A stretch of 56,276 nucleotides of DNA from a virus. The position numbers were made by a program, and so were the translations under genes. Below, piece after piece: positions 12,422 through 27,284 of this stretch. Numbering within the stretch: position 1 is the first letter of the stretch; each line of letters starts with the position of its first letter. The DNA lies in IMG/VR virus record IMGVR_UViG_3300033148_005213, positions 1 to 56,276 of that record. One strand, written 5' to 3'. The notes below the pieces were generated by a model. It was not told the DNA's origin. It did not search any database and worked only from the letters and a program-made list of their open reading frames with translations.

Positions 12422-14056
12422 TTATGACTTCCTTGTAATTTTCGTAACTTTGCCATTTTTAATAGTATATATAATTCTTTTCAATTCTTTTTTTAGTGGA
12501 GGATCATCAGCAGAAACTGTTAAATACGGATTCCTTTTTTCTACAAAGATTTCAGTTGTTTTTAATTCCACATTACCACCCCAAAGATATTCCAATCCTA
12601 CTAAAACATCCGAAATATAATCTTTGACCAATTGTTTACCTTCAAATTGGTGTTCTATACATAGACATTCATCATTTGTCTCTTGTTGGTTTACGGTGAC
12701 ATGTGGTGGATGATAAAGAGTATTTTTAAGCATATCTTTATAATCTTCAGCTTTTCTACTCTTAACATAGTATTCAATTGATTGACGTTCCTGATTAACT
12801 CTTTGACCGACTGTAAACAAATTGTTCTTGTTTACAAATTCCTGATCAACAAATGTATTGATTAAAGTAAAATCTGAAAAATTCTTTCTCACATCAAAAA
12901 TAGCTTTTTGTCCGTTCATCGATTTATCATCATAATTTTTTCTAATAGTTGCATCATGAATTTTTTGGAAATTAAAATTCATCTTTCCTTTGTTTCCAAG
13001 TTCTTCAATATGTTTATACAATCTCAAACCAATTGCATACGGATTTAAACCGACTCTTGACAAAGATACTACTTTAGAATTTAATAATGCAAAATCTGAT
13101 TCATGACTTCTAATTCTATCATCTGCCATAAATAATTTTTCATGCCAGTAACTTGCCCATCCTTCATTTGCAATTTTTGTTCTGATTTGAGGTGCAAAAT
13201 AAAGTGAAGTTCGCCTAACAATTGACAAAATGGATTTCATCCACTTATTTTGTTCTTTATTCAATTTAGGTGAATGTTCCTTTATAAATTCAAGAACATC
13301 AATATTATTTGAAGATGATGTTTTCTTCCATTCTTGATGTTTTGTTTCCAGTTCAGGATATTTACTTTTCACTTCACTGAAAAATATATTTTCACCTAAA
13401 TCAGCATTTTGATTTTTCAATTCATTATATCGTTCAATTTCTTTAATGATATAACTGGATGATTGCATTTGATCTGATAGAAAATGATTAAAATAATATT
13501 CAACCACTCCTTTTAATTCAGTTTTTTCATCAATATCCTGTTTAGACATTTCAGGAAAATAATGACAAATATTATCAATACTTCTTGAAAACTCAATAAC
13601 ATAATCAACCAATTTCATAGTATGCTTTTTTCTCAGTGATTCAATCAAATTTGAATCAGCTTTTGCAATACCTAAAAAATCATCATTCCAAGTATGTTTG
13701 AACATTGTGTTGTTTTGGAAAAAATCAACATGTGCAAGTACATGATAATATATCATGGTATTTAGCCAATCAGGATTATCTGAGTTGTAAAATGATATTG
13801 CAGCTCTCGTATTAATAACCGTTTCAAAAGCATTTGATGGTTGTATTTTGTAACGACCCTCAGTTTGTAGTAAATCAACGTCATGTACCCAAAAATCGTA
13901 CATTGTTGGAACCATTACTTTTGGAGACATTTCATTCATGTCCTTATTGGAAACAACATACTCCAATGTTTCATCATCAAAATTTAAACCAACATCTTTT
14001 GCTCTTAATTTACATTCTTCCATTATTTTCTTTTGTTTCTGGTCAATTAAATGCAT
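12422..14056 (-). CDS. SpoVR/YcgB-family protein, 544 aa
   Basis: Blocks matching E. coli YcgB run along the chain: FETVINTRAAISFYN...VLAHVDFFQNNTMF (77-119; YcgB YEIVINSNPCIAYL...MAHACYGHNSFFKNN), WMKSILSIVRRTSLYF.PQ (272-290), NEGWASYWHEKL (297-308; YcgB NEGWATFWHY) and GLNPYAIGLRLYKHIE (336-351). SpoVR proteins are encoded beside PrkA and YeaH in many bacteria and act in sporulation or stationary-phase survival; their biochemistry is not settled. Length (544) matches the family. It has its own promoter and sits between two KDL-family genes. Confidence 0.9.
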   Translation of the reverse strand: MHLIDQKQKKIMEECKLRAKDVGLNFDDETLEYVVSNKDMNEMSPKVMVPTMYDFWVHDVDLLQTEGRYKIQPSNAFETVINTRAAISFYNSDNPDWLNTMIYYHVLAHVDFFQNNTMFKHTWNDDFLGIAKADSNLIESLRKKHTMKLVDYVIEFSRSIDNICHYFPEMSKQDIDEKTELKGVVEYYFNHFLSDQMQSSSYIIKEIERYNELKNQNADLGENIFFSEVKSKYPELETKHQEWKKTSSSNNIDVLEFIKEHSPKLNKEQNKWMKSILSIVRRTSLYFAPQIRTKIANEGWASYWHEKLFMADDRIRSHESDFALLNSKVVSLSRVGLNPYAIGLRLYKHIEELGNKGKMNFNFQKIHDATIRKNYDDKSMNGQKAIFDVRKNFSDFTLINTFVDQEFVNKNNLFTVGQRVNQERQSIEYYVKSRKAEDYKDMLKNTLYHPPHVTVNQQETNDECLCIEHQFEGKQLVKDYISDVLVGLEYLWGGNVELKTTEIFVEKRNPYLTVSADDPPLKKELKRIIYTIKNGKVTKITRKS

Positions 14057-14091
14057 TTGTGTTCCTCCATCAAATTTAATAGTATTAATTA

Positions 14092-14120
14092 AATATACAC
14101 AACATTTTTAAAAATAGCAA
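14092..14120 (-). promoter_or_regulatory. early-type promoter TTGCTA-17-TATATT
   Basis: The -35 TTGCTA (14120-14115) and -10 TATATT (14097-14092) are 17 bases apart. It drives the SpoVR gene and the KDL paralog after it. Confidence 0.75.
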
Positions 14121-14131
14121 ACTTTTTTATT

Positions 14132-14455
14132 TTAAATTACGTCTAACCAACTTCTTCTTTTCTTTTTAAATGTATTTTTTTCAATTGATAATGTTGCAAT
14201 TAAATCATCTGCCCAAATAAATACAGATTCACTTGAAAATATAAATCGATTCTCATCATCTACAATCAACACATGTTCACCATCATCATACACTGAGTCT
14301 ATGGTAAATAAAACATTTACAGTATTTTTTTCTTCAATTTGCAGACTATCACACATTGATTTAATTGTATCTTGTCTGGGATGATTAATTGAAATAATAT
14401 TTGTCAAATATATGTGTTTTCCTTCGTCATCTGTTATCAAGTCTTTTAATTTCAT
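14132..14455 (-). CDS. small KDL-family paralog (WLDVI tail type), 107 aa
   Basis: The start at 14455 (MKLKDLITDDEGKHIYLTN) is set by GGAG seven bases upstream; the frame is open further but matches no paralog there. The protein ends FKKKRRSWLDVI, the second tail type of the family, also seen at 14557, 16162, 29333 and 29916. Acidic middle, no membrane segment. It lies between the hairpin at 14482-14550 and the SpoVR promoter. Confidence 0.75.
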   Translation of the reverse strand: MKLKDLITDDEGKHIYLTNIISINHPRQDTIKSMCDSLQIEEKNTVNVLFTIDSVYDDGEHVLIVDDENRFIFSSESVFIWADDLIATLSIEKNTFKKKRRSWLDVI

Positions 14456-14481
14456 TGTATTTCTCCATCTCACTTAAATTA

Positions 14482-14550
14482 GCCCTTTAAATTTCGCAAA
14501 ACTATTTCTAGTTGATACATTTACTGTTGAAAATAGTTTTGCGGTTTAAA
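14482..14550 (-). terminator. long conserved hairpin H1 (minus strand), likely terminator
   Basis: A 13-bp stem (14495-14507 with 14531-14543), extended by TTTAAA pairs, is followed on the minus strand by TTTAAAGGGC. All 69 bases are identical to 29841-29909. Two further relatives lie on the plus strand at 47900-47965 and 49886-49952. Each follows the 3' end of a small gene, here the KDL paralog ending at 14557. The loop carries ATGTATCA, also seen in the copy at 49886. Confidence 0.7.
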
Positions 14551-14556
14551 TGTTGT

Positions 14557-14886
14557 TTAAATTATGTTTAACCAACCACGTTTCTTTTTAGGTTTTTGGA
14601 CAACAGGCAACATTTCTTCACTATCTTGTAAACTATCTTCAACAAATTCTATTACTGTTTCAAAACTTATATGAAATATATATCCAACACCAGTCATCAT
14701 TTCAGAAACACGAATACGATTTTCTCCAATAATTTTTTTATCGAATCTAAATACATCATCCTTGCACAAGTTGCGGTTTAAATACGATTTAATATATTGT
14801 AATGAATTACAATCTATAGCATGAACAAAATCTATTATATTTATTTCCTTACCAACATCTTCATCTTTTAAGTCCTTAACTTTCAT
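14557..14886 (-). CDS. small KDL-family paralog (WLNII tail type), 109 aa
   Basis: It begins MKVKDLKDEDVGKEINIIDF and ends KPKKKRGWLNII; both ends closely match the paralog at 29916-30239, and the similarity continues at DNA level into the hairpin downstream of each. This points to duplication of a gene-plus-terminator cassette. The middle is diverged (FETVIEFVED near the end is shared with the paralog at 12080: PETVIRFVGD). It follows the YeaH gene by 11 bases. Confidence 0.75.
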   Translation of the reverse strand: MKVKDLKDEDVGKEINIIDFVHAIDCNSLQYIKSYLNRNLCKDDVFRFDKKIIGENRIRVSEMMTGVGYIFHISFETVIEFVEDSLQDSEEMLPVVQKPKKKRGWLNII

Positions 14887-14897
14887 AATGTACTTCC

Positions 14898-16145
14898 CTA
14901 TGATAATAATTTCTTAATAGTATTAATAATTTCTTGTTCGCTAATTGTTTCAGCTTGTCCCGAAGTCATTCTAAATATTTCTTTATAATCTTCAAGCATT
15001 CCAGAATTTTTAATATACTGTTCAACTGTAGTATCTCCGGAACCTCCCCAATTATTTTTAAAAATTGAAATACCTACTCTTGAAGCATATTTAAACAATT
15101 TTTTCAATTCTGATATGGTTTCTTCACCGCTATCCCAATCATCTCCATCCGAACAATAGAAACAATATATGTTATTATCTTTAGCTAAATTTTCTTCTTC
15201 AATTATATCATTTACAAGTTTAAAAGCCGGACTTACTTTCGTACCACCAGCAACCTGCGATTTATAATATGTATAAAAGTCTTTCACTTCTTTTGCATTT
15301 GTATCATGTAGAATGAATCTAGTTTGTACTCTATTTTGATATTGATGACATAACCAAGAATATAAGAATAGATGTTCTGTACATGAAACTTCAGCAGGTT
15401 TTCCATCCATTGATCCTGAATAATCCCTTACGAAAAATACAACAGCCTGAGATTCAAATACTTTTTCTCTTGACATTACTCTAAATACTTTATCATTTGG
15501 GTTTACTAAAAGTTTAGAAGTATCAACATTATTTGCATCCAATGTTCCCAGCAAAATATTTGTGGTTGCAATTTTCTTCAGTGTTGCTTTCTTATCTAAC
15601 AATTGCCCCGATCCAGTATTTCTATCTGTAAGATCATACTTAAATTTAGTAATAGATCTTTTCTTGCCCTTGTCTTTTAGATTAGGCAAGTCAAATTCTT
15701 CTGTTAAAATTCTACCAAGTTCAGCAGAATTAGAATCAATTTCATGATTTGCTCCATCACCTTCACCAGCTCCGTTTCCTTCACCCTCGCCTTGTTCAGG
15801 ATTTAATGGTCTTTCGCCAAGTATTTCACCCTCACCTTCTTCACCAGTGCCAGCTTCAGTTGGTCCTTCACCTTCGTCTTCATCTTCTTCAGATACAGAA
15901 TTATCATGATAGAATTTTGGTTCTGATGTAGTTGGCACTATTACAGCATTTGGTCCAACTCCAGATTTATTTGTAATTTTACCCATTCTTATTCTTCTAG
16001 GGAAACCATCTGCTTCCCTTTCATTATCTCTCTCCACCAATTCTTTCAACGTTCTTTTCAATTGTGTAGTTGCTTCAGATTTTTGATCAAACATTTTCGC
16101 ATCATCAAAATCATATAGCCTTACTACTTTTTTAATTTCTTCCAT
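14898..16145 (-). CDS. YeaH/YhbH-family (DUF444) VWA-domain protein, 415 aa
   Basis: The second half has a VWA-like fold with a MIDAS motif: VVFFVRDYSGSMDG (235-248; DxSxS), AGGTKVSPAFKLV (299-311) and YCFYCSDGDDWDSGEE (327-342), matching YeaH MFCLMDVSGSMD, TGGTIVSSALKLM and YAAQASDGDNWAD. EEFDLPNLKDK (149-159) matches YeaH EDLALPNLKQN. Residues 85-132 are an acidic, glycine-rich linker as in YeaH. The start at 16145 is the second of two ATGs, six bases after AGGTGG. YeaH is the usual operon partner of PrkA. Driven from 16531-16559. Confidence 0.9.
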   Translation of the reverse strand: MEEIKKVVRLYDFDDAKMFDQKSEATTQLKRTLKELVERDNEREADGFPRRIRMGKITNKSGVGPNAVIVPTTSEPKFYHDNSVSEEDEDEGEGPTEAGTGEEGEGEILGERPLNPEQGEGEGNGAGEGDGANHEIDSNSAELGRILTEEFDLPNLKDKGKKRSITKFKYDLTDRNTGSGQLLDKKATLKKIATTNILLGTLDANNVDTSKLLVNPNDKVFRVMSREKVFESQAVVFFVRDYSGSMDGKPAEVSCTEHLFLYSWLCHQYQNRVQTRFILHDTNAKEVKDFYTYYKSQVAGGTKVSPAFKLVNDIIEEENLAKDNNIYCFYCSDGDDWDSGEETISELKKLFKYASRVGISIFKNNWGGSGDTTVEQYIKNSGMLEDYKEIFRMTSGQAETISEQEIINTIKKLLS

Positions 16146-16161
16146 GATCATCCACCTTTTT

Positions 16162-16512
16162 TTAAATTACGTCCAACCAACTAGTATGTTTCTTTTTAGT
16201 TAATTGTTTATTTGATTCATCATCAACAATATCAAATTCTGTTATAGTGTGGATTGATGAATTGAATTGTATTAGAAATCCGTTGACTTCATCTTCAATT
16301 AGACAAACATTCTCATTTATTTTATAATTATCATATTGCCTATATGATCTCAAATGAAATTTATTCCCTATCTTCAGTTGTTGCATTGGCCAATTTTTCA
16401 TATCTCGAATTGCTTGTGCATCATTGATTACATCAATATTAGTAATTCGCAATTTACTATGTTCTGGAATTATTTTTGATGCGTATATTTCTAAAATTTT
16501 GTTCAATTTCAT
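16162..16512 (-). CDS. small protein with WLDVI tail, 116 aa
   Basis: The ATG at 16512 has AAAGAG six bases upstream and lies 19 bases from the promoter -10. The protein begins MKLNKILEIYASKIIPEHSKLRITN, only loosely like the other family members, but ends TKKKHTSWLDVI, the shared tail. Its stop is 16 bases before the YeaH start. It is the first gene after the promoter that also reads YeaH, which again places a WLDVI protein next to a module component. Confidence 0.7.
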   Translation of the reverse strand: MKLNKILEIYASKIIPEHSKLRITNIDVINDAQAIRDMKNWPMQQLKIGNKFHLRSYRQYDNYKINENVCLIEDEVNGFLIQFNSSIHTITEFDIVDDESNKQLTKKKHTSWLDVI

Positions 16513-16530
16513 AATCAACTCTTTATTTTT

Positions 16531-16559
16531 AATATACAAAAACTATTTAAGAAAAGCAA
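16531..16559 (-). promoter_or_regulatory. early-type promoter TTGCTT-17-TATATT
   Basis: The -35 TTGCTT (16559-16554) and -10 TATATT (16536-16531) have a 17-base spacer. It drives the 116-residue gene, YeaH and the KDL paralog at 14557. Confidence 0.75.
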
Positions 16560-16565
16560 GATATA

Positions 16566-16721
16566 TTATTTTTGTTTTCTTCTTCCACAATTCTTACAAG
16601 TTTTAATTTCCATATCAAATCTGTGAAAAACTTTATCAACTTCAATTGTAATTTCATAATCATGAACACATTTAAATTGTTTCCATAATTTTAAAATCAA
16701 TAATACTAAATCGCCAAACAT
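16566..16721 (-). CDS. small zinc-finger-like protein, 51 aa
   Basis: The frame begins MFGDLVLLILKLWKQFKCVHDYE and ends TCKNCGRRKQK. The CVHDY...CKNCG pattern is typical of small phage proteins thought to bind one zinc ion. No strong Shine-Dalgarno precedes the ATG at 16721, so expression is uncertain. It lies between the terminator at 16748-16797 and the promoter at 16531-16559. Confidence 0.5.
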   Translation of the reverse strand: MFGDLVLLILKLWKQFKCVHDYEITIEVDKVFHRFDMEIKTCKNCGRRKQK

Positions 16722-16747
16722 ATTTTAAATTCATTATTTTATATTTA

Positions 16748-16797
16748 AAAAGGGATTGAACATCAAACTATAATAATTCAATATTTTAATCCCTTTT
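16748..16797 (-). terminator. two-part hairpin terminator
   Basis: The outer stem AAAAGGGATT/AATCCCTTTT (16748-16757 with 16788-16797) encloses an inner ATTGAA/TTCAAT pairing, with A and T runs at the ends. It closes the unit of PrkA-like gene 2. Confidence 0.75.
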
Positions 16798-16829
16798 CTT
16801 TGGAGGAGGCCAAATGAAACTATTTAACT

Positions 16830-18866
16830 TTATTCAGGTTTACAGAATTCCTCGATGGTTTTACAAGAACACGTATGGCAAAAGCCTAATTTATTCATCA
16901 TAGTATCAACCATTCTATTGTAGAGTTGCTTATTTTCTTCATTAGTACGATTTGCAAGAGCACCAACCAAACTACCTGCTCCAGCGACATCTGACTTCAG
17001 GCGAACATCCGTAATTGCCTTAACAAGTTCATTGTTATCAAGAAAATCGTAACCTGGTTCTGTCACCATTTTCTGTGAATAAATTTTTGAAATTGTTGTC
17101 CTAAAACTTTCTTTTTGTTCGTTATTATTTAAACCCAATCTTTTTTCAACACTATTGATAAATGTTTCATTAATTTTCAAAGGAATTAAATCCCCTGATG
17201 ATGGATCTCTGTAGGTCCAAATTTTATCATCACCCAAATTCTTAGCAGAAATTCCAATAATCATATTCACATAGTTCATAACATCTTTTTTAATTGCAAG
17301 TGGTTCATCCATGTAGGCATTAAACACAGATTCCATGATATTTTTTCTATACAGTGTTTTTGCAATTGCAATGTCGTTTTGATATTTAATTCTATCATTT
17401 GGCTCAGATACATAATCTAAGATAATATTATCAAGAGCTTTGAAAATATCTCCAGCAAACATACATTTGCCTTCCTGAGTTGCTGAACTTTCTAATAATA
17501 ATTGCAATGCTCTTCCAAGGTTTCTATGTCCTAATCCTTTCTGTCCAAATCTTTTTGTAACATCCGGTTCAGTATTTAATTCAGTGATAATTTCAGTTAA
17601 AGTTTTTACTGATTTTTCACCAGCTACTTCACCAGCTGCCAATTGCATCATTTCAATTGGTTGTAATTTTTGCACTGATGGCATTCTTGATAATGTTACT
17701 GCAACTGATAAAGCATGGTTTAAATTAGGATCAACATGAAGTTTTTCTCCTGTCAATGTTGTTTTTTTCCTTGCAGAACCAAGTGAATATTCAGTTAGTT
17801 CTTTTTGTAGTTTGTAATTGGTATTGTGGCTCATATAAGTAAGTCTACATCTATCAACAACTGGAGCTTGTTCCTTTTCTTCCAAGAAATTTTGAAATTC
17901 TGCATTGTTACTTGTTGCAATAATTAGAGTGTCGATTGGCCATTTGAAACCTTCAATATCAATAGTTCTGTTTTGAATAACACCTAAATAAATTTGTACA
18001 AGATCTTTTTTGTTTTTAAAGATTTCATCAGCAAAGTGAATTCCGCCACCTGCTACTCTTGCTAATGCACCTCTTTGTAGATCAAATTTATACGGGTTTT
18101 TTGTATCTGTAATGTTAAGAAGTCTAGTAATAGACTCTTCACCAAGTAAATCAACAGCGGATGATGTAATTTTATCTTTTGCGGCATATTTACCTGTTAA
18201 AGTTCCTCTTGATTCTGAAATAGGTACTGGAACAACATCAATAAAATCATTCATAATTTTTTCAACATCATCATCACAATGTTCTTTAATTTGTTCTAAG
18301 ATGTAATCAGAACATGCACCCAAAACTCTTTTATTGTCTTCCCAAAATTCAATTTGTTCATCAGTTGCACCAAGCTCTTTTAAATCAATTCCTAATGCGA
18401 ATGCAAGTAACATTGGATCTTCAAATGTCTGTGATTCAATTTCTCTTATTTTGCCGTATGTTTCAAATTTATCTAGGTTTTTAAATCTAAATGTGTATCT
18501 CTTATTTTCGGGTAGTGCAGTAAAATTTCTGTATGCAGTGTTAATATAGTCAATAACCATCGTCTTGCCATTTCCGGGTTCGCCTATCAAAACAAATGCC
18601 ATTTCACTGGATGATCCACCTTCAGAAGCATCTTTAACATACGAAACAAAACTATTGAGCTCATCATACATCGCAATTGGGTGTTTCTTACCTTGTCTAA
18701 AAATATTGAAGTCGTAAGTTGAAACTCCATTTACTTTCACTTTTTTGATTGCATCATCTTCACTGTGAAGAATGAGTCTGCAAAGTGATTGAAAAACATT
18801 CTCAAATCTTCTTTCACCATTAATTACTTTTTGTACGTGTTCTAACAAACTTTCTCTTTTCTTCAT
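16830..18866 (-). CDS. PrkA/YeaG-like AAA+ protein 2, 678 aa
   Basis: Close to E. coli YeaG along its length: HPIAMYDELNSFVSYVKDA (62-80; YeaG FYGMEDAIEQIVSYLKHA), Walker A GEPGNGKT (95-102), GALARVAGGGIHFADEIFKN (266-285; YeaG GALCRANQGIMEFVEMFK), LIIATSN (314-320; YeaG IILAHSN), VDRCRLTYM with the Arg finger (337-345), and a C-terminal YRDPSSGDL block (YeaG YRDPDTGQL). PrkA is the AAA+ kinase/protease of the PrkA-YeaH-SpoVR stress module. The ATG at 18866, five bases after GAGGT, is preferred to the GTG four codons earlier. No promoter separates it from the gene at 18910. Confidence 0.9.
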   Translation of the reverse strand: MKKRESLLEHVQKVINGERRFENVFQSLCRLILHSEDDAIKKVKVNGVSTYDFNIFRQGKKHPIAMYDELNSFVSYVKDASEGGSSSEMAFVLIGEPGNGKTMVIDYINTAYRNFTALPENKRYTFRFKNLDKFETYGKIREIESQTFEDPMLLAFALGIDLKELGATDEQIEFWEDNKRVLGACSDYILEQIKEHCDDDVEKIMNDFIDVVPVPISESRGTLTGKYAAKDKITSSAVDLLGEESITRLLNITDTKNPYKFDLQRGALARVAGGGIHFADEIFKNKKDLVQIYLGVIQNRTIDIEGFKWPIDTLIIATSNNAEFQNFLEEKEQAPVVDRCRLTYMSHNTNYKLQKELTEYSLGSARKKTTLTGEKLHVDPNLNHALSVAVTLSRMPSVQKLQPIEMMQLAAGEVAGEKSVKTLTEIITELNTEPDVTKRFGQKGLGHRNLGRALQLLLESSATQEGKCMFAGDIFKALDNIILDYVSEPNDRIKYQNDIAIAKTLYRKNIMESVFNAYMDEPLAIKKDVMNYVNMIIGISAKNLGDDKIWTYRDPSSGDLIPLKINETFINSVEKRLGLNNNEQKESFRTTISKIYSQKMVTEPGYDFLDNNELVKAITDVRLKSDVAGAGSLVGALANRTNEENKQLYNRMVDTMMNKLGFCHTCSCKTIEEFCKPE

Positions 18867-18909
18867 CTTTGACCTCACCTTAGATTTGAATTATTTAGTT
18901 GTAAAACTT

Positions 18910-19458
18910 TTATTTTAATATTGCAAAATTGTGTAATTCAGTTGTTAATGTTTTAATGGTATGACTCAATGATGATCCCCATTCTGTCCACTCAACACCA
19001 TTAAAGTATTGAAACTTTTCACCTGCTTCATATGCATCAATCATTCGTCCATGTGTCAAACGATCTTCACTTAGAGGAGTAAACAAATGAAGTTCTTTAT
19101 TTTCAACAATTGATTTCTTTATTATGTCTCTACTAAATGGAAATGTTTTCATTTCGTCTACATAGTAATCTTCATCAAATGGAACTACTACATGCATTTC
19201 AGGAAAATGTTTTAGATGATCTGAACAAGACATAAATTTTTTTACTGGTTTTGAAATATAAATGTGTATAGTATCGTCAATTGTTTCCACTTGATCACGA
19301 CCATCAATTGTTTCACCTGATTTACTTTCTTCAGGTCTCACAGGGGGTTCGGAACCAATTTGAGCTTTTACAGATCTCATATATTCTTCAGTTCCCATTT
19401 CACAATGCTTTCGATCTGCTTTCAATTGTTTTAAAGTCTTTTTAATTGCTTCTAACAT
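18910..19458 (-). CDS. hypothetical protein in the PrkA-2 unit, 182 aa
   Basis: The ATG at 19458 follows GAAGGAG; the product starts MLEAIKKTLKQLKADRKHCE. The rest is acidic and beta-rich (VVVPFDEDYYVDEMKTFPFS; WTEWGSSLSH) without any motif I recognise. It is the first gene after the promoter at 19500-19528 and lies directly upstream of PrkA-like gene 2 with no terminator between, so the two are probably co-expressed and it may belong to the module. Confidence 0.7.
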   Translation of the reverse strand: MLEAIKKTLKQLKADRKHCEMGTEEYMRSVKAQIGSEPPVRPEESKSGETIDGRDQVETIDDTIHIYISKPVKKFMSCSDHLKHFPEMHVVVPFDEDYYVDEMKTFPFSRDIIKKSIVENKELHLFTPLSEDRLTHGRMIDAYEAGEKFQYFNGVEWTEWGSSLSHTIKTLTTELHNFAILK

Positions 19459-19499
19459 TTTATTCTCCTTCACATTATTTTAATTGCTTACATACTTTC

Positions 19500-19528
19500 A
19501 ATATAAGTACAAATATTCTAAATAGCAA
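19500..19528 (-). promoter_or_regulatory. early-type promoter TTGCTA-17-TATATT
   Basis: The -35 TTGCTA (19528-19523) and -10 TATATT (19505-19500) are 17 bases apart; the -35 overlaps the 3' end of the next gene. It drives the 182-residue gene and PrkA-like gene 2. Confidence 0.75.
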
Positions 19529-19766
19529 GCTTTATTTTCTTATATTGTATGAAAAATAATCTATGAGATTTATCAACGTTTGAGATATCAGCCCAATTTA
19601 AAAACTCATCTTCATCTTTAAACACTCCAACACCAGTAATTCCTAGAGATGCATTTCCGCTTATATGAGGAAGACAATAATCGACAAACAAATTTCCATT
19701 GCCACCATGATTGTAACCATCTACTAAAAATTCATTATCAACTTGTGATTCTGTAATAGTTTCCAT
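19518..19766 (-). CDS. hypothetical protein, 82 aa
   Basis: The ATG at 19766 follows GGGAGGCACGAAG. The 82-residue product (METITESQVDNEFLVDGYNHGGNG...) has an NHGGNGNLFVDYCLPHISGN segment and a basic tail. No known family. It stands alone behind its own promoter at 19808-19836. Confidence 0.65.
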   Translation of the reverse strand: METITESQVDNEFLVDGYNHGGNGNLFVDYCLPHISGNASLGITGVGVFKDEDEFLNWADISNVDKSHRLFFIQYKKIKLAI

Positions 19767-19807
19767 CTTCGTGCCTCCCAGCATTTTTTATTTTTACTTA
19801 CAATAGA

Positions 19808-19836
19808 AATATACAAAAACTTTTTGGAAATAGCAA
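19808..19836 (-). promoter_or_regulatory. early-type promoter TTGCTA-17-TATATT
   Basis: The -35 TTGCTA (19836-19831) and -10 TATATT (19813-19808) have a 17-base spacer. It drives the 82-residue gene. Confidence 0.75.
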
Positions 19837-19864
19837 GAACTATTTCACTTATTTTACACAAATA

Positions 19865-19900
19865 AAAAATCCTCACAATATGTTAGCTATGAGGATTTTT
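19865..19900 (-). terminator. hairpin terminator
   Basis: An 11-bp stem (19865-19875 with 19890-19900) is flanked by A and T runs. It ends the gene-free transcript that starts near 20218. Its loop and distal stem share TATGTTAGCTATGAGG with the terminator at 965-1002. Confidence 0.85.
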
Positions 19901-20218
19901 GGAGGCAATTTATATGTAAAATCATTATATTCAAGAACACCATCAGTAGGTTTCTAACCTACTTCCCAACTATGAATTTACACTTCTTCGAAATTTATTT
20001 GGTTGTTTTGGACATTTAATAAGTTCACGCATTTTCATTAAAACAGAGTTCGTGATTCTCCCTGTGGTTGTCCGATTAATTTCAAATTATAGCAATTTCA
20101 ATTTTATTGGGCCGATCCTTCAAATCTCTTTAGTGATGGTGATACTGAGCCGAAATATTTGGTTGTTGAGTGTAAGCTAATACACCATATCCCGTCAAGT
20201 ATTTTTATTTATTTATAT
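19865..20218 (-). ncRNA. candidate structured non-coding RNA, about 350 nt
   Basis: This stretch has no plausible gene but has its own early promoter (20225-20253) and terminator (19865-19900). On the minus strand I see a GTGTA/TACAC hairpin near the 5' end; CACCATCA in the first third and TGATGGTG near the 3' end can pair over eight bases; GTAGGTT/AACCTAC is a 7-bp hairpin. In the middle, ACAGGG/CTCTGT forms a hairpin whose loop TCACG can pair with CGTGA just downstream (a pseudoknot), all enclosed by GGACA/TGTCC. ACAACCAAATA occurs twice. A 22-codon frame (MKMRELIKCPKQPN...) starts in the middle but lacks a well-placed ribosome site. No known RNA family is recognised. Confidence 0.5.
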
Positions 20219-20224
20219 ATATGA

Positions 20225-20253
20225 AATATACAAAGACTTTTTGTAAATAGCAA
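20225..20253 (-). promoter_or_regulatory. early-type promoter TTGCTA-17-TATATT
   Basis: The -35 TTGCTA (20253-20248) and -10 TATATT (20230-20225) are 17 bases apart. The only thing downstream before a terminator is the gene-free stretch 19865-20218. Confidence 0.75.
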
Positions 20254-20265
20254 GAGAAATAATAA

Positions 20266-20937
20266 TTATTTTGATACCCATCCAATTTGTTTTCTATATC
20301 TATCAACAGTTTCTTCAAAATCATATTTATTGAATGATGTTAGCACAGCATTTGTAAATTTGTCCCAGTATTCTTGAAATGTTGGAAATTCTCTTTTGAA
20401 CACAGTTTTAATTGACCTCCAGCTGATGGAGCAATGTTTTTGAGCAAATATTCTATTTTTAATTCTTTGGTCAAAAACATTATTAAAATTTGTACTATAA
20501 TAAAATATATTTCTATATTTATTCAATTTTTGTTCAGCAGCATTTATTTTTTCTAACAAAATATCAATTTCTTTATCAAACACATTTATTTTATTATTCA
20601 AATCAGCTATGTTGTTTTTAATTTCTTTGTTAATTTCTTTGTGCCACCATCTTCTAAATTTATTAAAATTATTATATTCTCTTAGTTTATCTTCTTCACT
20701 GATTTTATTTTTAATCAAATACCATCTAGATAATGAGATATCAAAAACCATGTATCCAAAATAATTGTAATCATCAATTAATTTTTTCAAAGATTTATCT
20801 TTTTGAAATTCTGTGTATTTTTGAGCAGCATAATCTATATTTACACTTATAATCCATTGTTTATAATATTTTTCATATTCTTCTTTTTCTGGTATCAATT
20901 TATGAAACATCAATTCAAGCTGTAATTTACCTTGCAT
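20266..20937 (-). CDS. coiled-coil protein of unknown function, 223 aa
   Basis: The ATG at 20937 lies seven bases after TGGAGG and overlaps the preceding gene by 11 bases. The protein is rich in Lys, Asn, Tyr and Trp. A coiled coil spans about 100-150 (NKEIKNNIADLNNKINVFDK...), followed by a tail with HCSISWRSIKTVFKREFP. No known domain is seen. It is the last gene of the unit containing primase. Confidence 0.65.
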   Translation of the reverse strand: MQGKLQLELMFHKLIPEKEEYEKYYKQWIISVNIDYAAQKYTEFQKDKSLKKLIDDYNYFGYMVFDISLSRWYLIKNKISEEDKLREYNNFNKFRRWWHKEINKEIKNNIADLNNKINVFDKEIDILLEKINAAEQKLNKYRNIFYYSTNFNNVFDQRIKNRIFAQKHCSISWRSIKTVFKREFPTFQEYWDKFTNAVLTSFNKYDFEETVDRYRKQIGWVSK

Positions 20938-21127
20938 ACCAAATCCTCCATTGTCCATTATTTAAACATTCAATACATGTTGATTTAAAAAAGGAACATT
21001 CTCCACTTTCGTCATCATGTTTCCATTTACATAGATATCCTTCATGATCTTCAGCTTCTAATGCATATATTTCTTGGTCAATAATGAGTTTGAGAGGTAA
21101 CATTTTATCCAGTTCTTCAATAGTCAT
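20927..21127 (-). CDS. small hypothetical protein, 66 aa
   Basis: It starts MTIEELDKMLPLKLIIDQEIY, closely like the start of the protein at 29333-29611 (MTIDEMNNLLPFKVKICSIW), so the two are paralogs at least at their N-termini. A CSFFKSTCIECLNNGQW segment has three cysteines. GGAGAAATAG precedes the ATG at 21127, which directly follows the primase stop. Confidence 0.65.
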   Translation of the reverse strand: MTIEELDKMLPLKLIIDQEIYALEAEDHEGYLCKWKHDDESGECSFFKSTCIECLNNGQWRIWYAR

Positions 21128-22132
21128 CTATTTCTCCAAATTAACTTTCTTTATTCTTCTTAATTTCATGATGTTTTTTAATTTCATTTGAGCAACTATT
21201 CCACTATATGTATTATTTAGTAAAATACGCTTTATATCATCCTTTGTATGGCCATCTATAATATATTCGTTATTATCCTTCCATGTAAATGATTTTGGCC
21301 AAATGACCACCTTAAAGTCTTTCTCAGCCATTTCTAAACTTTTTCGAATACCGGTTTCATCATTATCAAAACAAAAAACAGGTTTTTTCAAAATATCCAA
21401 CAATAAATCTGGAAGTGAAGCAGACAGCATTGAAATTGAATTACTGATAAAGAATGAATCAATGTGACTCTCTAAAATATAAACAATTTTATCTTTATCA
21501 ATATTATACAAATTGCCAACTTTCAAATTTTTCTTAGATGCTAACGAAATGTGAAATTTCTTTTCAGTTATTGATCTACCTAAAAACCCATACATTGCAT
21601 CATCAGAATTTCTATACAACGGCATTATTAACATTTGCCCATATGCTTTTTCTTTTTTACTAGCTTTACACCAAAAGAATTTTTCATATATTTCTTTTGG
21701 AATTTTTCTATTTTTACAATATTTTACCGCATCTTGATTTTCTTTAATGTTTACAAATATTTTTTTAGATAGTGACTTTACGAATTTTGTTTGATCTCCA
21801 TCGTATGTGCTATTTGAAGTTGTTGATTTTCTTCTGATAGATTTTCTTGATATTACATCATCCAATTTTTCTCTTTTTTGTTCTTCATTGAATTTATTGA
21901 ATAATGTTGTATCCACAATTTTCAAATATTTCCAAAATGAAGTATGTAATCCGCAATTCCAACAACTGACAATCATTCCACCATCTGGTTGAGGACTAAA
22001 CCATAATCTAGTTTTTGATTTTGATTTTTCTGAATCGCCACAAACATTGCATCTTGCATTCCATTTACCATATTCTTTTTGCTTCAAATTGATCAAGCCT
22101 AAAGAAAATATATAATCAGTATAATTAATCAT
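21128..22132 (-). CDS. DNA primase, T4 gp61-like, 334 aa
   Basis: An N-terminal zinc-binding domain has CNVCGDS (C28, C31) and CWNCG (C57, C60), as in T4 gp61 (CPVCGDS, CYNCN). A TOPRIM catalytic domain follows, with YILESHIDSFFISNS (218-232; Glu221) and VFCFDNDETG (252-261; Asp256, Asp258). It would make RNA primers at the replication fork with a gp41-type helicase, which is not in this window. No clear Shine-Dalgarno precedes the ATG at 22132; it starts right after the stop of the decayed KDL gene. Confidence 0.9.
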   Translation of the reverse strand: MINYTDYIFSLGLINLKQKEYGKWNARCNVCGDSEKSKSKTRLWFSPQPDGGMIVSCWNCGLHTSFWKYLKIVDTTLFNKFNEEQKREKLDDVISRKSIRRKSTTSNSTYDGDQTKFVKSLSKKIFVNIKENQDAVKYCKNRKIPKEIYEKFFWCKASKKEKAYGQMLIMPLYRNSDDAMYGFLGRSITEKKFHISLASKKNLKVGNLYNIDKDKIVYILESHIDSFFISNSISMLSASLPDLLLDILKKPVFCFDNDETGIRKSLEMAEKDFKVVIWPKSFTWKDNNEYIIDGHTKDDIKRILLNNTYSGIVAQMKLKNIMKLRRIKKVNLEK

Positions 22133-22135
22133 TTA

Positions 22136-22506
22136 TCACATACATTTTTTATCATTATCCCAAATAAATTCAGGCTTCTTTTTATTTTCTATATCATCAA
22201 CAAATTCAAATTCTGCTTCTCCATGAAAACTAAGTGCAATGTCTTTATTTCCATTTTCATCTACTGAATGTGCATCAATCCCCTCCATTACGCCATCTGC
22301 AATAATCCTCATACTAACATAAGCTACTATAAATGTCATTTGATATAACTCAAATATATCATTTGATATAACTCAAATATATCATTTAATGAAAGTCTTT
22401 CCAATATAAAATCTATACCAAATGATGTACATATTACTGGATCTAAATAATTAGTAATTTTAATTTCTTTGCCAACATCATCACCTTTTAATTCTGAAAT
22501 TTTCAT
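22136..22506 (-). pseudogene. KDL-family paralog broken by a 23-bp tandem duplication
   Basis: From ATG at 22506 the frame starts MKISELKGDDVGKEIKITNYLDP but ends after 56 residues at 22336. The frame that follows (MTFIVAYVSMRIIADGVMEG...) overlaps it as ATGA and ends KKKPEFIWDNDKKCM. Deleting one copy of the 23-bp repeat at 22337-22382 restores a single frame. One extra A in the run near 22145 would also restore the tail KKMYVIN of the intact paralog at 12080. The gene is thus a recent casualty, although the ATGA overlap could still allow two-part translation. Confidence 0.7.
22337..22382. repeat. perfect 23-bp tandem duplication
   Basis: Two adjacent identical copies of the unit catttgatataactcaaata plus tat (22337-22359 and 22360-22382) disrupt the KDL paralog. 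Since 23 is not a multiple of three, the duplication shifts the frame. Confidence 0.95.
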
Positions 22507-22525
22507 TTAATCTCCTAAAAAATAA

Positions 22526-22659
22526 AAAGTTATTGAATTTGGCACATCGGATAGATAGCGATATACAATATTAACTTACCAAAGAAACTACTGTAAAAGG
22601 GCATTCCAGCAATCCCTATCCGACACATACCAACACTGGCCCTAAAATTCAATAACTTT
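22526..22659 (-). ncRNA. candidate structured RNA closed by a 15-bp inverted repeat
   Basis: AAAGTTATTGAATTT at 22526-22540 and its exact complement at 22645-22659 form a 15-bp outer stem. Inside, TCGGATAG/CTATCCGA (22547-22554 with 22616-22623) makes an 8-bp stem and GGGATT/AATGCCC a further hairpin with one bulge. On the minus strand the outer stem is followed by TTATTTTTT, so the whole may act as an elaborate terminator or a stable RNA. No own promoter is seen; the tRNA promoter at 23183-23211 could supply it. Confidence 0.4.
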
Positions 22660-22673
22660 ATAAATTTATAAAT

Positions 22674-23057
22674 TTAATTATTTACAATCCATAATTTTTT
22701 ATCATTGTCCCAAATTAATGGTTGTTGCTTTTTTTACAATTGAATCATCAACAAATTCGATTTCTGCTTCACCATGAAAACTAATACCAATATTATTTAA
22801 AATTTTTAAGTTCAGCGTATTTACTAAATGAATAATATCGATAATGCCCCTCATCACCTATAATTTCAAATTCATATATACTTGCCAAGATAATTAAGTG
22901 TAAATTTACAATTGATTATATCATCAATATTGCAACTTATTTTCAACATCATTTTCAACGCTTCTTCGTTTATATGTAATCGATCATTATCATCGACATA
23001 TTTAATAAGTCTATATTCTTTACCAACATCTTCTTTTGTCAAATCTTTAACTTTCAT
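22674..23057 (-). pseudogene. KDL-family paralog with several frameshifts
   Basis: From ATG at 23057 the frame reads MKVKDLTKEDVGKEYRLIKY and stops at 22872 after 61 residues. Three shifted pieces continue the paralog pattern: YEFEIIGDEGHYRYYSFSKY, then NNIGISFHGEAEIEFVDDS, then QPLIWDNDKKLWIVNN ending at 22674. The last two match SFHGEAEFEFVDD and PEFIWDNDKK of the neighbouring decayed copy. At least three one-base changes separate this from an intact gene of about 125 residues. The 61-residue N-terminal piece might still be translated. Confidence 0.65.
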
Positions 23058-23091
23058 TTACAATTTCTCTCAATTCATTTAACTTTAATTG

Positions 23092-23165
23092 CGGCAATGA
23101 CAGGATTTGAACCTGCGACCTAGTGAATTTTTATTCCCCTTATTCAACCACCGAACTCCATTGCC
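23092..23165 (-). tRNA. tRNA-like gene, anticodon uncertain
   Basis: A perfect 7-bp acceptor stem (GGCAATG/CATTGCC), a T-arm GCAGG-TTCAAAT-CCTGT and a D-arm GTTC...GAAT with GG in the loop are present. The anticodon arm is irregular: the best stem has six pairs with a G-A mismatch and a G-T wobble, and loop ATAAAAA, giving AAA in the anticodon position. CCA is not encoded. The gene may be decayed or need unusual processing. The promoter at 23183-23211 lies just upstream. Confidence 0.6.
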
Positions 23166-23182
23166 GTTTAATGCATTACTTG

Positions 23183-23211
23183 AATTTACTAAATAATTTT
23201 AGTAATAGCAA
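23183..23211 (-). promoter_or_regulatory. early-type promoter TTGCTA-17-TAAATT
   Basis: The -35 TTGCTA (23211-23206) and -10 TAAATT (23188-23183) have a 17-base spacer; transcription would start about ten bases before the tRNA-like gene. Confidence 0.7.
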
Positions 23212-23220
23212 GCATTATTT

Positions 23221-23406
23221 TTAATAACTTTGCAAAATAGCTTTCTTAACTCTTTTTGCAAAAAATGAAGGATTTTGTTCCAAATCATTCATATGATCAT
23301 TTATTTCAACCACCTGCTCTATATGATCAGTCATGAACACATTTGAATTAAATTTGGTATCAATTATATAATAAAATCCTTCTATCTTACCATAAACATA
23401 TCTCAT
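23221..23406 (-). CDS. hypothetical protein, 61 aa
   Basis: A 61-residue protein (MRYVYGKIEGFYYIIDTKFN...) with a basic C-terminal helix. AAAGGAG precedes the ATG at 23406, which overlaps the stop of the membrane-protein gene before it as ATGA. No family is recognised. Confidence 0.6.
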   Translation of the reverse strand: MRYVYGKIEGFYYIIDTKFNSNVFMTDHIEQVVEINDHMNDLEQNPSFFAKRVKKAILQSY

Positions 23407-23612
23407 TTCAACTCCTTTAGTTCTTTATAAACCCATTTAATAATATCACATAGTATACTTGAATAACAAATAATTAATGCTATTGGCGGTATTAACATAA
23501 CTAAAAATTTTTTTCTATTCTTATTTGATAATGCAAGTGCCATTCCTGAATTGATTACCAATATAAATAATAAAAATATCATATTAGAGTATATTATAAT
23601 GCTTGAGATCAT
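23403..23612 (-). CDS. small two-span membrane protein, 69 aa
   Basis: The start at 23612 follows GGAGAAAGAA and overlaps the upstream stop as ATGA. Two hydrophobic segments (IIIYSNMIFLLFILVINSG and FLVMLIPPIALIICYSSIL) are separated by a basic loop NKNRKK, with a basic tail. The loop and the MIPP-x-A motif align with the 56-residue protein encoded just upstream, so the pair is probably a tandem duplication. Function unknown. Confidence 0.6.
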   Translation of the reverse strand: MISSIIIYSNMIFLLFILVINSGMALALSNKNRKKFLVMLIPPIALIICYSSILCDIIKWVYKELKELK

Positions 23613-23779
23613 TTCTTTCTCCAATTTAAAATTAACCATCTGACAAAATTATAAATAGTTGCAAGTATTGCCAATGGTGGAATCATAAAAAAATTAAACT
23701 TTCTATCATTCCACCAATATGACAACATCCAATTTACAATCAATACTACTATTATGAAATACAGAAATTCAGGAGACAT
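23609..23779 (-). CDS. small two-span membrane protein, 56 aa
   Basis: The ATG at 23779 follows GGAGTATAGT. Two spans (FLYFIIVVLIVNWMLSYWW and FFMIPPLAILATIYNFVRWL) flank a NDRKFN loop, with an RKK tail. The second span shares MIPP-x-A with the next gene downstream. Such two-span proteins with basic ends could be holin- or superinfection-type membrane proteins, but the sequence does not say. Confidence 0.6.
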   Translation of the reverse strand: MSPEFLYFIIVVLIVNWMLSYWWNDRKFNFFMIPPLAILATIYNFVRWLILNWRKK

Positions 23780-23780
23780 A

Positions 23781-24071
23781 CTATACTCCAAAATAATTTA
23801 GTGTTTTAGTTTTAATAATCTCTTCACTTTGAGGAACTTCTACTTCTACATCTTTTCGTTCTTGCATTTTGAAATCACTATCATACAACCAGAATCTATT
23901 GCCAAGATCCTCAAAATAAACAAGATATTGATAAGTTTCACGATGATCATGAACATCTTCAATAATTCCAATTTCTCCAACCCAAAGATTGACAATTTCT
24001 CCATACTTTCGTTGTATGCAATCTCTCATCATAACCACTTCATTGTCTTTTTTGTACTTTGATTCTTTCAT
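23781..24071 (-). CDS. hypothetical protein, 96 aa
   Basis: After a charged start (MKESKYKKDNEVV) comes a beta-rich core (EIVNLWVGEIGIIEDVHDHR...YLVYFEDLGNRFWLYDSDF) resembling an SH3-like or KOW-type small barrel, and then an acidic tail. This is a structural impression only. AAAGGAG lies before the ATG at 24071. First larger gene after the promoter at 24227-24255. Confidence 0.65.
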   Translation of the reverse strand: MKESKYKKDNEVVMMRDCIQRKYGEIVNLWVGEIGIIEDVHDHRETYQYLVYFEDLGNRFWLYDSDFKMQERKDVEVEVPQSEEIIKTKTLNYFGV

Positions 24072-24083
24072 AATACTTCTCCT

Positions 24084-24197
24084 TTACGTAATAATACATT
24101 TAAATATACAGATACATATTCCTGTTAATAAAGCACCAACATAGATTCCTAACATAAAAGCAGTGTCAAATACAAATTTTCGTTCTTTTGAATTCAT
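24084..24197 (-). CDS. small single-span membrane protein, 37 aa
   Basis: MNSKERKFVFDTAFMLGIYV continues into a hydrophobic GALLTGICICIFKCIIT. A GAGGT Shine-Dalgarno lies six bases upstream. The small size lowers confidence, but the start site, orientation and position right after the promoter at 24227-24255 support a real gene. Confidence 0.55.
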   Translation of the reverse strand: MNSKERKFVFDTAFMLGIYVGALLTGICICIFKCIIT

Positions 24198-24222
24198 ATT
24201 TTACCTCATTTAATTTACTTAA

Positions 24223-24230
24223 TATAAATA
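24223..24230 (+). promoter_or_regulatory. T4-type late promoter (TATAAATA), plus strand
   Basis: An exact TATAAATA upstream of the SGNH tail protein. It overlaps the -10 of the divergent minus-strand early promoter at 24227-24255. Confidence 0.65.
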
Positions 24231-24255
24231 TATAAAAATATATTAAAAAAAGCAA
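24227..24255 (-). promoter_or_regulatory. early-type promoter TTGCTT-17-TATATT
   Basis: The -35 TTGCTT (24255-24250) and -10 TATATT (24232-24227) have a 17-base spacer. It drives the small genes at 24197-23221 and shares bases with a plus-strand late promoter. Confidence 0.7.
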
Positions 24256-24292
24256 GTAAAATTATTATTATTTTATACAAAGGATTTAAATC

Positions 24293-26626
24293 ATGGCTGT
24301 GATACATACAAATCAATATAACAATTTACATGTAGAATCAATAGAATATCTGGCAGATGCATCTACAACTGATCTGGTTGCAGACAATGAATTATTTAGC
24401 ATTCACCAAGCCACTGATGATATATATAGATTAAATGATAAAATTGTAGTTGATAATGGGCCAGCTGTAATAGGTGAATATTTTTATTGTTTCAATTACG
24501 CTTATGCAGATTGTTTAACTGATTTTAATCCTGGACTTAGTGATTTTGCATTAGCTGTAAAAGTAAAGCTTTCTACAATTACTACTTTGAGACAAGGCAT
24601 TTTTGGTAAACTAAATACTGAAACTGATCAAGGTAGTTATGGATTTTATTATTTAGAAAATCAAGGCACTAAGCCAACATATGATCTTCAATTTCCAGGT
24701 GGTGGAACATATGTTGGACAATTAAATATTGATGCAGCTACAGATTTTGTAAATTTAATTATGTCTGTTGATCGTGATGGATATATGGATATATATTCAG
24801 GTAAAACATTATTAAAGCACATTGATATATCTAGTGACGTAGCTATAGATTTAACTCAACGTTTCCCATTAAGATATGGTGCTGTTGAAGATGATTTGCA
24901 AGTTATATACAAAGCTCAAGGAATTGGCATATCTACAGGTTGTGTTTGGAATAAAGCTTTAAATCAAACAGATGTTGATAATTATATTGATAACGATGAT
25001 GCAGGATCTAATGTAATTTTAAAACATAGATTAAATGCTGGTAGTGGCGACACTATATATGATATGACAGTTTATGATACTCCAAAGAAAAATATTGTTT
25101 ATATTGGCGATTCCATTACTAGAGGTTGGCCTACATATAATCGCAGTTATCCAATACAACTAAAAGAAATGTATGATATACCAAATGTAAGAGAAATGGC
25201 AAACTTTAACCGTTCTGATAATGGAGATAAAGTTCTTTACATGATTGATGATGGAGTTTACGTTGATGGTCTTTACAAAACTGGAATATGTGATACACTC
25301 ATTTTTATGGGTGGAATAAATGATTATAATGGTAATGGTGTTACTGCACCTGAATTATATGCATTAATAAAAACATACGTAAACGCTAGAGCTGCTACAG
25401 GATGGAAAGTTCATGTTATTTCCAATCCTTCATGTGGATCAGCTGGATGGGAAACTTTACGAGCAGAAGTTTATACTTCAATGACAACTGATGCAGGGTT
25501 TAATTGTGAAAGTGTTATTGATATTAGAAGTACTCCTGTAGGAATGTTAAATGGGTATTCTGATCTAACATATTTTACACCGGATCAAATACATTTGACT
25601 GCTGATGCATTGACGATAATTGCAAATGCTGTTTATAATGCTATAGATTTAACACCGCAAGCAACTAGATCTGATGCTAATTTAAATCCGATGAATGAAT
25701 TACCAACAGGTGTGCCAACCGCATTTGATGTAAGTACAGTTACAAGTGTTACATATACTTCACTACATGCTGAAATTACAAATGTTGCAGCAAGTTGGGA
25801 ATATGTTCGGAAAATATTAAATGTGCCAATTGGAGTTGATGTTACTGTTGAAGTTGAACGAGATATTGTATCTGGTACATATGCTTTATATATTGGTACA
25901 TCACCCCTTGGAACTCAATATCTATTTGATAATTCACATCCTGACATTACTACTACATTCACAACAACTGCTGATTCACTGTACATTAATTTATTCGCCA
26001 ATAATGGCATCAATAGGATTAAAAACATAACAGTAACTATTGACGGTCATTGTGTTGATAATTGGAATCAAAATACTGATGGATCATTCAAACCTACTCT
26101 AACATTAGAAGGTGCAGGGAAAAAAGGTGATGCATATATTTCAAAACGGATTGGAACAAATTTAGATGCAACTGGTTCACCTATTTCAATACAACCGTAT
26201 GATTGGTCACAATTACCTCATTCTTTCAAATTTAAAGACATTGCTGCATTTCAAATCTGGAATAAAAATGATGCAGCTGTTTGGGGTTCATCTTTCACTG
26301 GTACTCCGGTCGATGATCAATTTACATGGACATATACTGAATTATTGAATTTTGAAACATATATTGAACCAGCATACGAAAATCAATTATTCATATTGAA
26401 AAATAATTTAAATCAATTGATTGAAGTACTAACATATTCTGACGCATTAACAGGTGATGATTTAACAGATACTGAAAACTATTTAAGTGCTTATAATCAG
26501 AATGTTAGAAAAATTAATGGGTATGTAAACAAAAAAAGAAATGCTGGAAATAATATTGTTGAAGAAAAAGAAAATATAACTTGCATTGTCAATATTAATG
26601 ATCCAAATATTGTATGGATGTACTAA
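24293..26626 (+). CDS. tail or decoration protein with SGNH/GDSL hydrolase domain, 777 aa
   Basis: Residues about 60-250 look like a LamG/concanavalin-type sandwich (GEYFYCFNYAYADC...FALAVKVKL). An SGNH hydrolase follows: GDSITRG with nucleophile Ser274, GGINDYN with Asn343 (block III), and DQIHLTAD with Asp431 and His434 (block V). Such domains remove acetyl or acyl groups from surface glycans, fitting host-surface recognition. Further beta-rich domains follow to about 700. The first residues (MAVIHTNQYNNLHVES) and the last (CIVNINDPNIVWMY) are shared with the next gene, so both ends are probably attachment modules. Late promoter at 24223-24230. Confidence 0.8.
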   Translation: MAVIHTNQYNNLHVESIEYLADASTTDLVADNELFSIHQATDDIYRLNDKIVVDNGPAVIGEYFYCFNYAYADCLTDFNPGLSDFALAVKVKLSTITTLRQGIFGKLNTETDQGSYGFYYLENQGTKPTYDLQFPGGGTYVGQLNIDAATDFVNLIMSVDRDGYMDIYSGKTLLKHIDISSDVAIDLTQRFPLRYGAVEDDLQVIYKAQGIGISTGCVWNKALNQTDVDNYIDNDDAGSNVILKHRLNAGSGDTIYDMTVYDTPKKNIVYIGDSITRGWPTYNRSYPIQLKEMYDIPNVREMANFNRSDNGDKVLYMIDDGVYVDGLYKTGICDTLIFMGGINDYNGNGVTAPELYALIKTYVNARAATGWKVHVISNPSCGSAGWETLRAEVYTSMTTDAGFNCESVIDIRSTPVGMLNGYSDLTYFTPDQIHLTADALTIIANAVYNAIDLTPQATRSDANLNPMNELPTGVPTAFDVSTVTSVTYTSLHAEITNVAASWEYVRKILNVPIGVDVTVEVERDIVSGTYALYIGTSPLGTQYLFDNSHPDITTTFTTTADSLYINLFANNGINRIKNITVTIDGHCVDNWNQNTDGSFKPTLTLEGAGKKGDAYISKRIGTNLDATGSPISIQPYDWSQLPHSFKFKDIAAFQIWNKNDAAVWGSSFTGTPVDDQFTWTYTELLNFETYIEPAYENQLFILKNNLNQLIEVLTYSDALTGDDLTDTENYLSAYNQNVRKINGYVNKKRNAGNNIVEEKENITCIVNINDPNIVWMY

Positions 26627-26632
26627 TTTAAT

Positions 26633-26640: not shown

Positions 26641-26668
26641 TATAAAAAATAATATATAAGAGGAAAAT

Positions 26669-27277: not shown

Positions 27278-27284
27278 AATTTAC

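What the first reader, a model, noticed from the sequence alone, without database searches (positions are those of the whole stretch)
19865..20253. Gene-free transcription unit: a candidate phage ncRNA of about 350 nt
A perfect early promoter (20225-20253) and a strong terminator (19865-19900) enclose a stretch without a convincing gene. It can fold with an 8-bp long-range pairing (CACCATCA/TGATGGTG), a 7-bp hairpin and a nested pseudoknot (ACAGGG/CTCTGT hairpin whose TCACG loop pairs with CGTGA, within GGACA/TGTCC). ATGGTG near the 5' end competes for the same CACCAT, so two alternative folds are possible.
Basis: partly seen in the sequence, partly recalled or inferred. Interest (0 to 1): 0.62.

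Follow-up and report, generated by a model that had tools for sequence, protein, structure and literature searches.

The report
Orphan phage noncoding RNA gene
Between two protein genes, a T4-like virus of bacteria carries a short stretch with its own start and stop signals for transcription but no protein gene, so it very probably makes an RNA about 350 letters long that has no known relatives; its job is unknown and its folding is only weakly supported so far.

Summary
On the minus strand, a strong copy of the phage's own promoter (20253-20225) and an intrinsic terminator (19900-19865) enclose the largest gene-free gap in the window. A matrix built from the phage's other promoters gives 12 sites of 24 bits or more. 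The other 11 lead to a gene within about 55 nt; this one leads to none before its terminator. The terminator has a diverged copy at 948-1001 with a compensatory stem change.

The 8-bp long-range pair occurs in 45% of shuffles, an H-type pseudoknot in 35%, an enclosed one in 11%. Without the terminator the fold is marginal (p about 0.03-0.08). The competing 5' fold is 7 kcal/mol worse, probability 0.00.

Not reported before: the hairpin 19962-19946 abuts a 7-bp closing helix as a tRNA T-arm abuts its acceptor stem. With a UUNRA loop this occurs in 0 of 5000 shuffles. T4 RNAC and tmRNA share that layout, but models of both fail to claim the sequence.

No homolog was found in the collections I could search, so covariation is untested. 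Verdict: very probably a real orphan phage ncRNA gene, a new member of a known kind; function unproven.

The parts
20225..20253 (-). Promoter TTGCTA-17-TATATT of the phage's own class, 26.4 bits; start of transcription inferred near 20218
   Evidence: 12 sites of 24 bits or more in the window; the other 11 lead to genes
19862..20218 (-). Inferred ncRNA, about 350 nt
   Evidence: Between promoter and terminator; no ORF of 25 aa or more on this strand; largest gene-free gap of the window. No transcript data
19865..19900 (-). Intrinsic terminator
   Evidence: diverged copy at 948-1001 with a compensatory U-A to G-C change in the stem; pair probabilities 0.97-1.00
20134..20141 (-). P1, 5' strand CACCATCA (7 of its 8 pairs are firm)
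   Evidence: Pair probability 0.99-1.00 for 7 pairs, 0.18 for the eighth; an 8-bp pair of this kind is common in shuffles
19938..19945 (-). P1, 3' strand TGATGGTG
20106..20111 (-). P2, 5' strand CCCAAT
   Evidence: Mean pair probability 0.98
19965..19970 (-). P2, 3' strand GTTGGG, ending two bases before the hairpin
19946..19962 (-). Hairpin GUAGG-UUAGAAA-CCUAC, shaped like a tRNA T-arm and abutting P1 without a gap
   Evidence: Pair probability 1.00; geometry with a UUNRA loop in 0 of 5000 shuffles, framed after the fact
20010..20073 (-). Candidate enclosed pseudoknot: GGACA/UGUCC around ACAGGG/CUCUGU and UCACG/CGUGA
   Evidence: Enclosing stem 0.91, inner stems 0.41 and 0.55; similar motifs in 11% of shuffles
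20156..20167 (-). First copy of AACAACCAAAUA, mostly unpaired
19996..20007 (-). Second copy of AACAACCAAAUA, unpaired
19901..19907 (-). UGCCUCC, exposed, complementary to the Shine-Dalgarno GGAGGCA at 19778-19772 of the next gene
   Evidence: may be chance

Best explanation
This is a dedicated noncoding RNA gene of a T4-like phage. The phage-class promoter 20253-20225 starts an RNA near 20218 and the terminator ends it near 19862. The RNA (about 350 nt) has a 5' leader, a core domain (20141-19938) closed by a 7-8 bp helix with a long inner arm and a hairpin abutting the closing helix, a single-stranded 3' tail, and the terminator. The most likely mode of action is as a trans-acting small RNA: the folded core and terminator protect it from decay, while exposed segments (the repeated AACAACCAAAUA and the UGCCUCC tail) touch a target, either an mRNA, perhaps at Shine-Dalgarno sites, or a protein. 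Shown: promoter class, terminator, absence of a gene. Predicted: the core helices. Inferred: that the RNA is made, made early, stable, and acts in trans.
For: Promoter in the top class of the genome, and the only one of 12 that leads to no gene. Largest gene-free gap, no ORF. Terminator directly before the next promoter, with a compensated copy elsewhere. Core helices P1, P2, hairpin and enclosing stem at 0.9-1.0 probability; ensemble better defined than shuffles at p 0.03-0.04. Exposed repeated 12-mer and C-rich tail. T4-like and other lytic phages are known to make ncRNAs of unknown function (PMC9697503, PMC7567579).
Against: No transcript data and no homolog, so no covariation. Fold energy without the terminator is ordinary. 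No convincing target in the window. A 26-codon coding-like frame at the 3' end leaves room for a gene relic.
Confidence: 0.6

Rival explanations
1. A tRNA-like stable RNA in the manner of T4 RNAC or a degenerate tmRNA: the 7-bp closing helix is an acceptor stem, the abutting hairpin a T-arm, and the RNA is handled by tRNA-processing or translation factors.
For: T-arm-on-acceptor geometry with a UUNRA loop in 0 of 5000 shuffles; with P2 and a D-region match, expected about 5e-5 per transcript. T4 RNAC has an acceptor-like stem and an abutting T-arm, both with covarying pairs; its model's best place in the interval is this end, on the right strand.
Against: Tests were framed after seeing the sequence; an AT-rich chance site scores nearly as high. 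tmRNA models are silent here. No G3-U70, no T-loop C56, no CCA, no typical tag. RNAC model only 6 bits, nothing in the full search.
Confidence: 0.17
2. A relic: a former small gene between promoter and terminator has decayed or been mostly deleted, and the transcript has no function.
For: Frame 19953-19876 (-), KPTDGVLEYNDFTYKLPPKILIANIL, has codon usage near the 0.1% tail of wrong frames. Promoter flanks of this unit and of the next gene are 76% alike over 71 nt, as after a duplication.
Against: No start codon; part of the frame is the terminator module, which is noncoding in its copy. No match in Pfam, PHROGs or phage genomes. After counting the frames and positions tried the signal is near p 0.05. 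Phage genomes delete useless DNA quickly (general knowledge).
Confidence: 0.15
3. A cis-acting leader or attenuator of the downstream 88-aa gene: read-through past the terminator gives an mRNA whose Shine-Dalgarno GGAGGCA can be masked by UGCCUCC.
For: GGAGGCA occurs once in the window, at that gene, and UGCCUCC lies just before the terminator.
Against: The 88-aa gene has its own stronger promoter (19836-19808, 30.8 bits) downstream of the terminator. UGCCUCC also precedes the terminator copy at 948-1001, whose next gene has no matching site. No competing antiterminator pairing: terminator pairs at 0.97-1.00.
Confidence: 0.08

Closest known systems
T4 RNAC (rnaC, species 1 RNA) of Tevenvirinae
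   Same: Small phage RNA of unknown function in a T4-like phage; 7-nt acceptor-like strand directly after a 5-bp, 7-nt-loop T-arm; long inner arm (PMC9697503)
   Different: RNAC is 139 nt, lies in a tRNA cluster, is classed as a late RNA, has a canonical T-loop, and shares no alignable sequence; its covariance model does not claim this RNA
tmRNA (ssrA), including phage tmRNA such as that of methylophage Melnitz
   Same: One-piece layout acceptor / D-region / P2 / pseudoknot / P2 / T-arm / acceptor can be drawn; the Melnitz tmRNA lies just downstream of an early promoter (PMC9004378)
   Different: No model match; lacks G3-U70, T-loop C56, CCA and a typical tag; only about 200 nt from stem to stem
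ICP1 ncRNA of about 800 nt, and GOLLD/ROOL RNAs
   Same: Phage RNA from a gene-free interval, function unknown (PMC7567579)
   Different: Those are far longer; no GOLLD or ROOL match in the Rfam scans
Bacterial and phage trans-acting sRNAs (for example VpdS, PreS; PMC12197685)
   Same: Own promoter, intrinsic terminator, exposed segments that could pair with mRNA
   Different: No target, chaperone or expression shown here; no homology tested

Membership tests
Phage noncoding RNA gene (general kind) | Own promoter and terminator enclosing no gene | tested here: met
Phage noncoding RNA gene (general kind) | A discrete transcript is made | not testable with these tools
   No expression data
Phage noncoding RNA gene (general kind) | Structure kept by covariation among relatives | not testable with these tools
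   No homolog of the interval found; only the terminator has a copy, with a compensatory change
Any Rfam 15 family | Score at or above the family's gathering threshold | tested here: not met
   in the window only the tRNA at 23092-23165
tmRNA | Match to the tmRNA covariance model | tested here: not met
   (own-record search of RF00023 rings only at 50854-50921, 5.8 bits)
tmRNA | Alanine identity pair G3-U70 and 3' CCA | tested here: not met
   Sequence: third pair C-G, stem followed by G-UUC
tmRNA | Acceptor stem plus abutting T-arm plus P2 | tested here: met
   T-loop UUAGAAA departs from UUCRA
tmRNA | Tag reading frame | tested here: inconclusive
   Several short frames, none with a typical tag end
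T4 RNAC | Match to a covariance model of RNAC homologs | tested here: not met
   6.0 bits, E 0.07 in 366 bases; nothing in 138 kb
T4 RNAC | Location in a tRNA cluster | tested here: not met
   The only tRNA found lies about 3 kb away at 23092-23165

The most novel reading that the evidence does not exclude
A new tRNA-like phage RNA: a domain of about 200 nt capped by a 7-bp acceptor-like stem and a T-arm-like hairpin, but without anticodon, alanine identity pair or tag, transcribed from its own promoter. It would be a third lineage beside T4 RNAC and tmRNA, mimicking or capturing tRNA-handling factors.
Probability: 0.15. Interest if true: 0.65.

Novelty: new member of a known kind. Interest (0 to 1): 0.42.

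Why it matters
Few lytic-phage ncRNAs have a known function, and T4 RNAC and RNAD still have none (PMC9697503). A well-bounded, gene-free unit on the phage's own promoter is an easy deletion target. If the tRNA-like geometry proves real and recurs, it would suggest that T4-like phages repeatedly build tRNA-like RNAs that are not tRNAs, which would make the old RNAC question testable.

Tried and rejected
Relatives: DNA and protein searches of phages, plasmids, viral contigs and genome contigs gave only two relatives worth using, by capsid protein (L006, 8 kb; L007/G002, 74 kb). Neither has the promoter class, the terminator or a similar RNA. Promoter and terminator patterns in viral and genome contigs: none. 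Intact gene from the coding-like frame: rejected. Homology to the gene upstream of the terminator copy: at shuffle level (p 0.13). Riboswitch, intron, RNase P, 6S, GOLLD or ROOL: no Rfam support. ARAGORN at relaxed thresholds gives several mutually contradictory tRNA and tmRNA drawings, judged noise. Pairing scan against translation starts in the window: the best hit is the RNA's own terminator, the rest long gapped duplexes, no convincing target. An apparent resemblance to the T4 RNAC probe (TTGACGG...GGATATGGT), noticed while reading PMC9697503, did not stand up in alignment.

Full report
WHERE IT LIES. The window is an IMG/VR virus record of 56,276 bases, possibly a fragment. It is a very AT-rich (27% GC) T4-like phage: its capsid protein matches gp23 of Campylobacter, cyanobacterial and enterobacterial T4-like phages at about 25% identity. 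It carries a primase and a SpoVR / DUF444 / PrkA gene set. The finding sits on the minus strand between a 230-aa ORF (20266-20958) and an 88-aa ORF (19518-19784).

THE UNIT IS WELL BUILT AS A TRANSCRIPTION UNIT. I collected all TTGCT[AT]-17-TATATT sites and built a weight matrix from 11 of them, leaving the candidate out. Twelve sites score 24.0 bits or more; the next is 18.3. The candidate scores 26.4. Of the other eleven, ten are followed 29-52 nt downstream by a Shine-Dalgarno plus start codon, and the eleventh (16559) by ORF 16162-16539. Only the candidate leads to nothing: the first start with a Shine-Dalgarno lies 363 nt on, beyond the terminator stem. The gap is the largest gene-free gap in the window (481 bp). 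The terminator is one of few strong ones. A copy at 948-1001 (87% identical) has the same loop but a U-A to G-C compensatory change in the stem, so the hairpin itself is maintained.

THE FOLD IS ONLY MARGINALLY BETTER THAN CHANCE. With the terminator, z is -2.7. Without it the energy is ordinary (p 0.06-0.08). Ensemble diversity and the numbers of strong and of long-range strong pairs are at p 0.03-0.04, and about 3-6% of all 314-nt stretches of the genome do as well. In the partition function P1, P2, the hairpin and the enclosing GGACA/UGUCC stem are firm (0.9-1.0); the two pseudoknot stems are at 0.41 and 0.55; the alternative 5' pairing is at 0.00 and 7 kcal/mol worse.

The hairpin GUAGG-UUAGAAA-CCUAC (19962-19946) touches the 3' strand of the closing helix with no gap, and P2 ends two nucleotides before it. 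This is the layout of a tRNA T-arm on an acceptor stem, and of tmRNA. A 5-bp stem with a 7-nt loop abutting a 7-bp closing helix occurs in 0.8% of shuffles, and with a UUNRA loop in 0 of 5000. With a P2-like helix and a D-region match to the tmRNA consensus the expectation is about 5e-5 per transcript. These tests were framed after seeing the sequence, and an AT-rich chance site elsewhere in the genome scores 13 against its 14, so I discount them strongly.

MEMBERSHIP. No Rfam family reaches its threshold, and no tmRNA model reports the locus even at E 10. G3-U70, the T-loop C56, CCA and a typical tag are missing. I then built a model of T4 RNAC from seven Tevenvirinae homologs. RNAC itself shows an acceptor-like stem and an abutting T-arm, both with covarying pairs. 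Its model's best place in the interval is this T-arm end on the right strand, but with 6 bits and E 0.07 in 366 bases, and nothing in the full search. So the RNA resembles RNAC in layout and cannot be filed in its family.

OTHER FEATURES. A 12-nt repeat AACAACCAAAUA lies in two predicted open regions (20167-20156 and 20007-19996; p 0.012 in shuffles, though 11% of 318-nt stretches of the genome hold a repeat as long). UGCCUCC (19907-19901) is complementary to the only GGAGGCA of the window, in the Shine-Dalgarno region of the next gene, which may be chance. A coding-like frame at 19953-19876 is near the 0.1% tail of wrong frames. It has no start codon, runs into the terminator module, which is noncoding in its copy, and has no database match.

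RELATIVES. Only two usable relatives exist in the viral contigs searched (capsid 65-69% identical), and neither holds the unit. No covariation test was possible. This is the main limit of the report.

MECHANISM. I commit to a dedicated phage ncRNA acting in trans through its exposed segments (0.6). The rivals are a tRNA-like stable RNA (0.17), a relic (0.15) and a cis leader (0.08). The 0.6 rests mostly on the transcription unit; the trans-acting step is inference. Only the architecture is shown; expression, stability and targets are inferred. Precedents for phage ncRNAs of unknown function are in PMC7567579 (ICP1), PMC9697503 (T4 RNAC and RNAD) and PMC9004378 (a phage tmRNA just downstream of an early promoter).

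Noticed in passing
window 23092-23165 (-): A tRNA-like gene found by Rfam (39 bits) but not by ARAGORN; acceptor and T-arm are canonical, but the anticodon arm does not form a normal 5-bp stem with a 7-nt loop. A weak promoter-like site (18.3 bits) lies just upstream at 23211.
   Followed up: partly
window 948-1001 (-): Second copy of the terminator module (UGCCUCC, AAAAAGCCUCAUAGCUAACAUA...UGAGGCUUUUUU), 87% identical, with a compensatory stem change and a conserved loop.
   Followed up: yes
window 5026 and 6270 (-): Two promoter regions that are identical over the 29-base core and the next 12 bases, upstream of different genes.
   Followed up: no
window 12422-18878 (-): SpoVR, DUF444 and PrkA homologs (and a further 709-aa ORF at 9878-12007) side by side in a phage; the PrkA protein finds only one distant match among 50,697 phage records.
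   Followed up: no
L013 4041-5245 (G002): In the relative G002 the capsid gene is split into two overlapping ORFs (4041-4349 and 4346-5245) with part of the protein missing, which may be a frameshift, a deletion or an assembly fault.
   Followed up: no
window 12080-30245 (-), several genes: A family of small paralogous proteins beginning MK(V/L)KDL..EDVGK and often ending in KKxRGWLDVI, repeated through the window.
   Followed up: no
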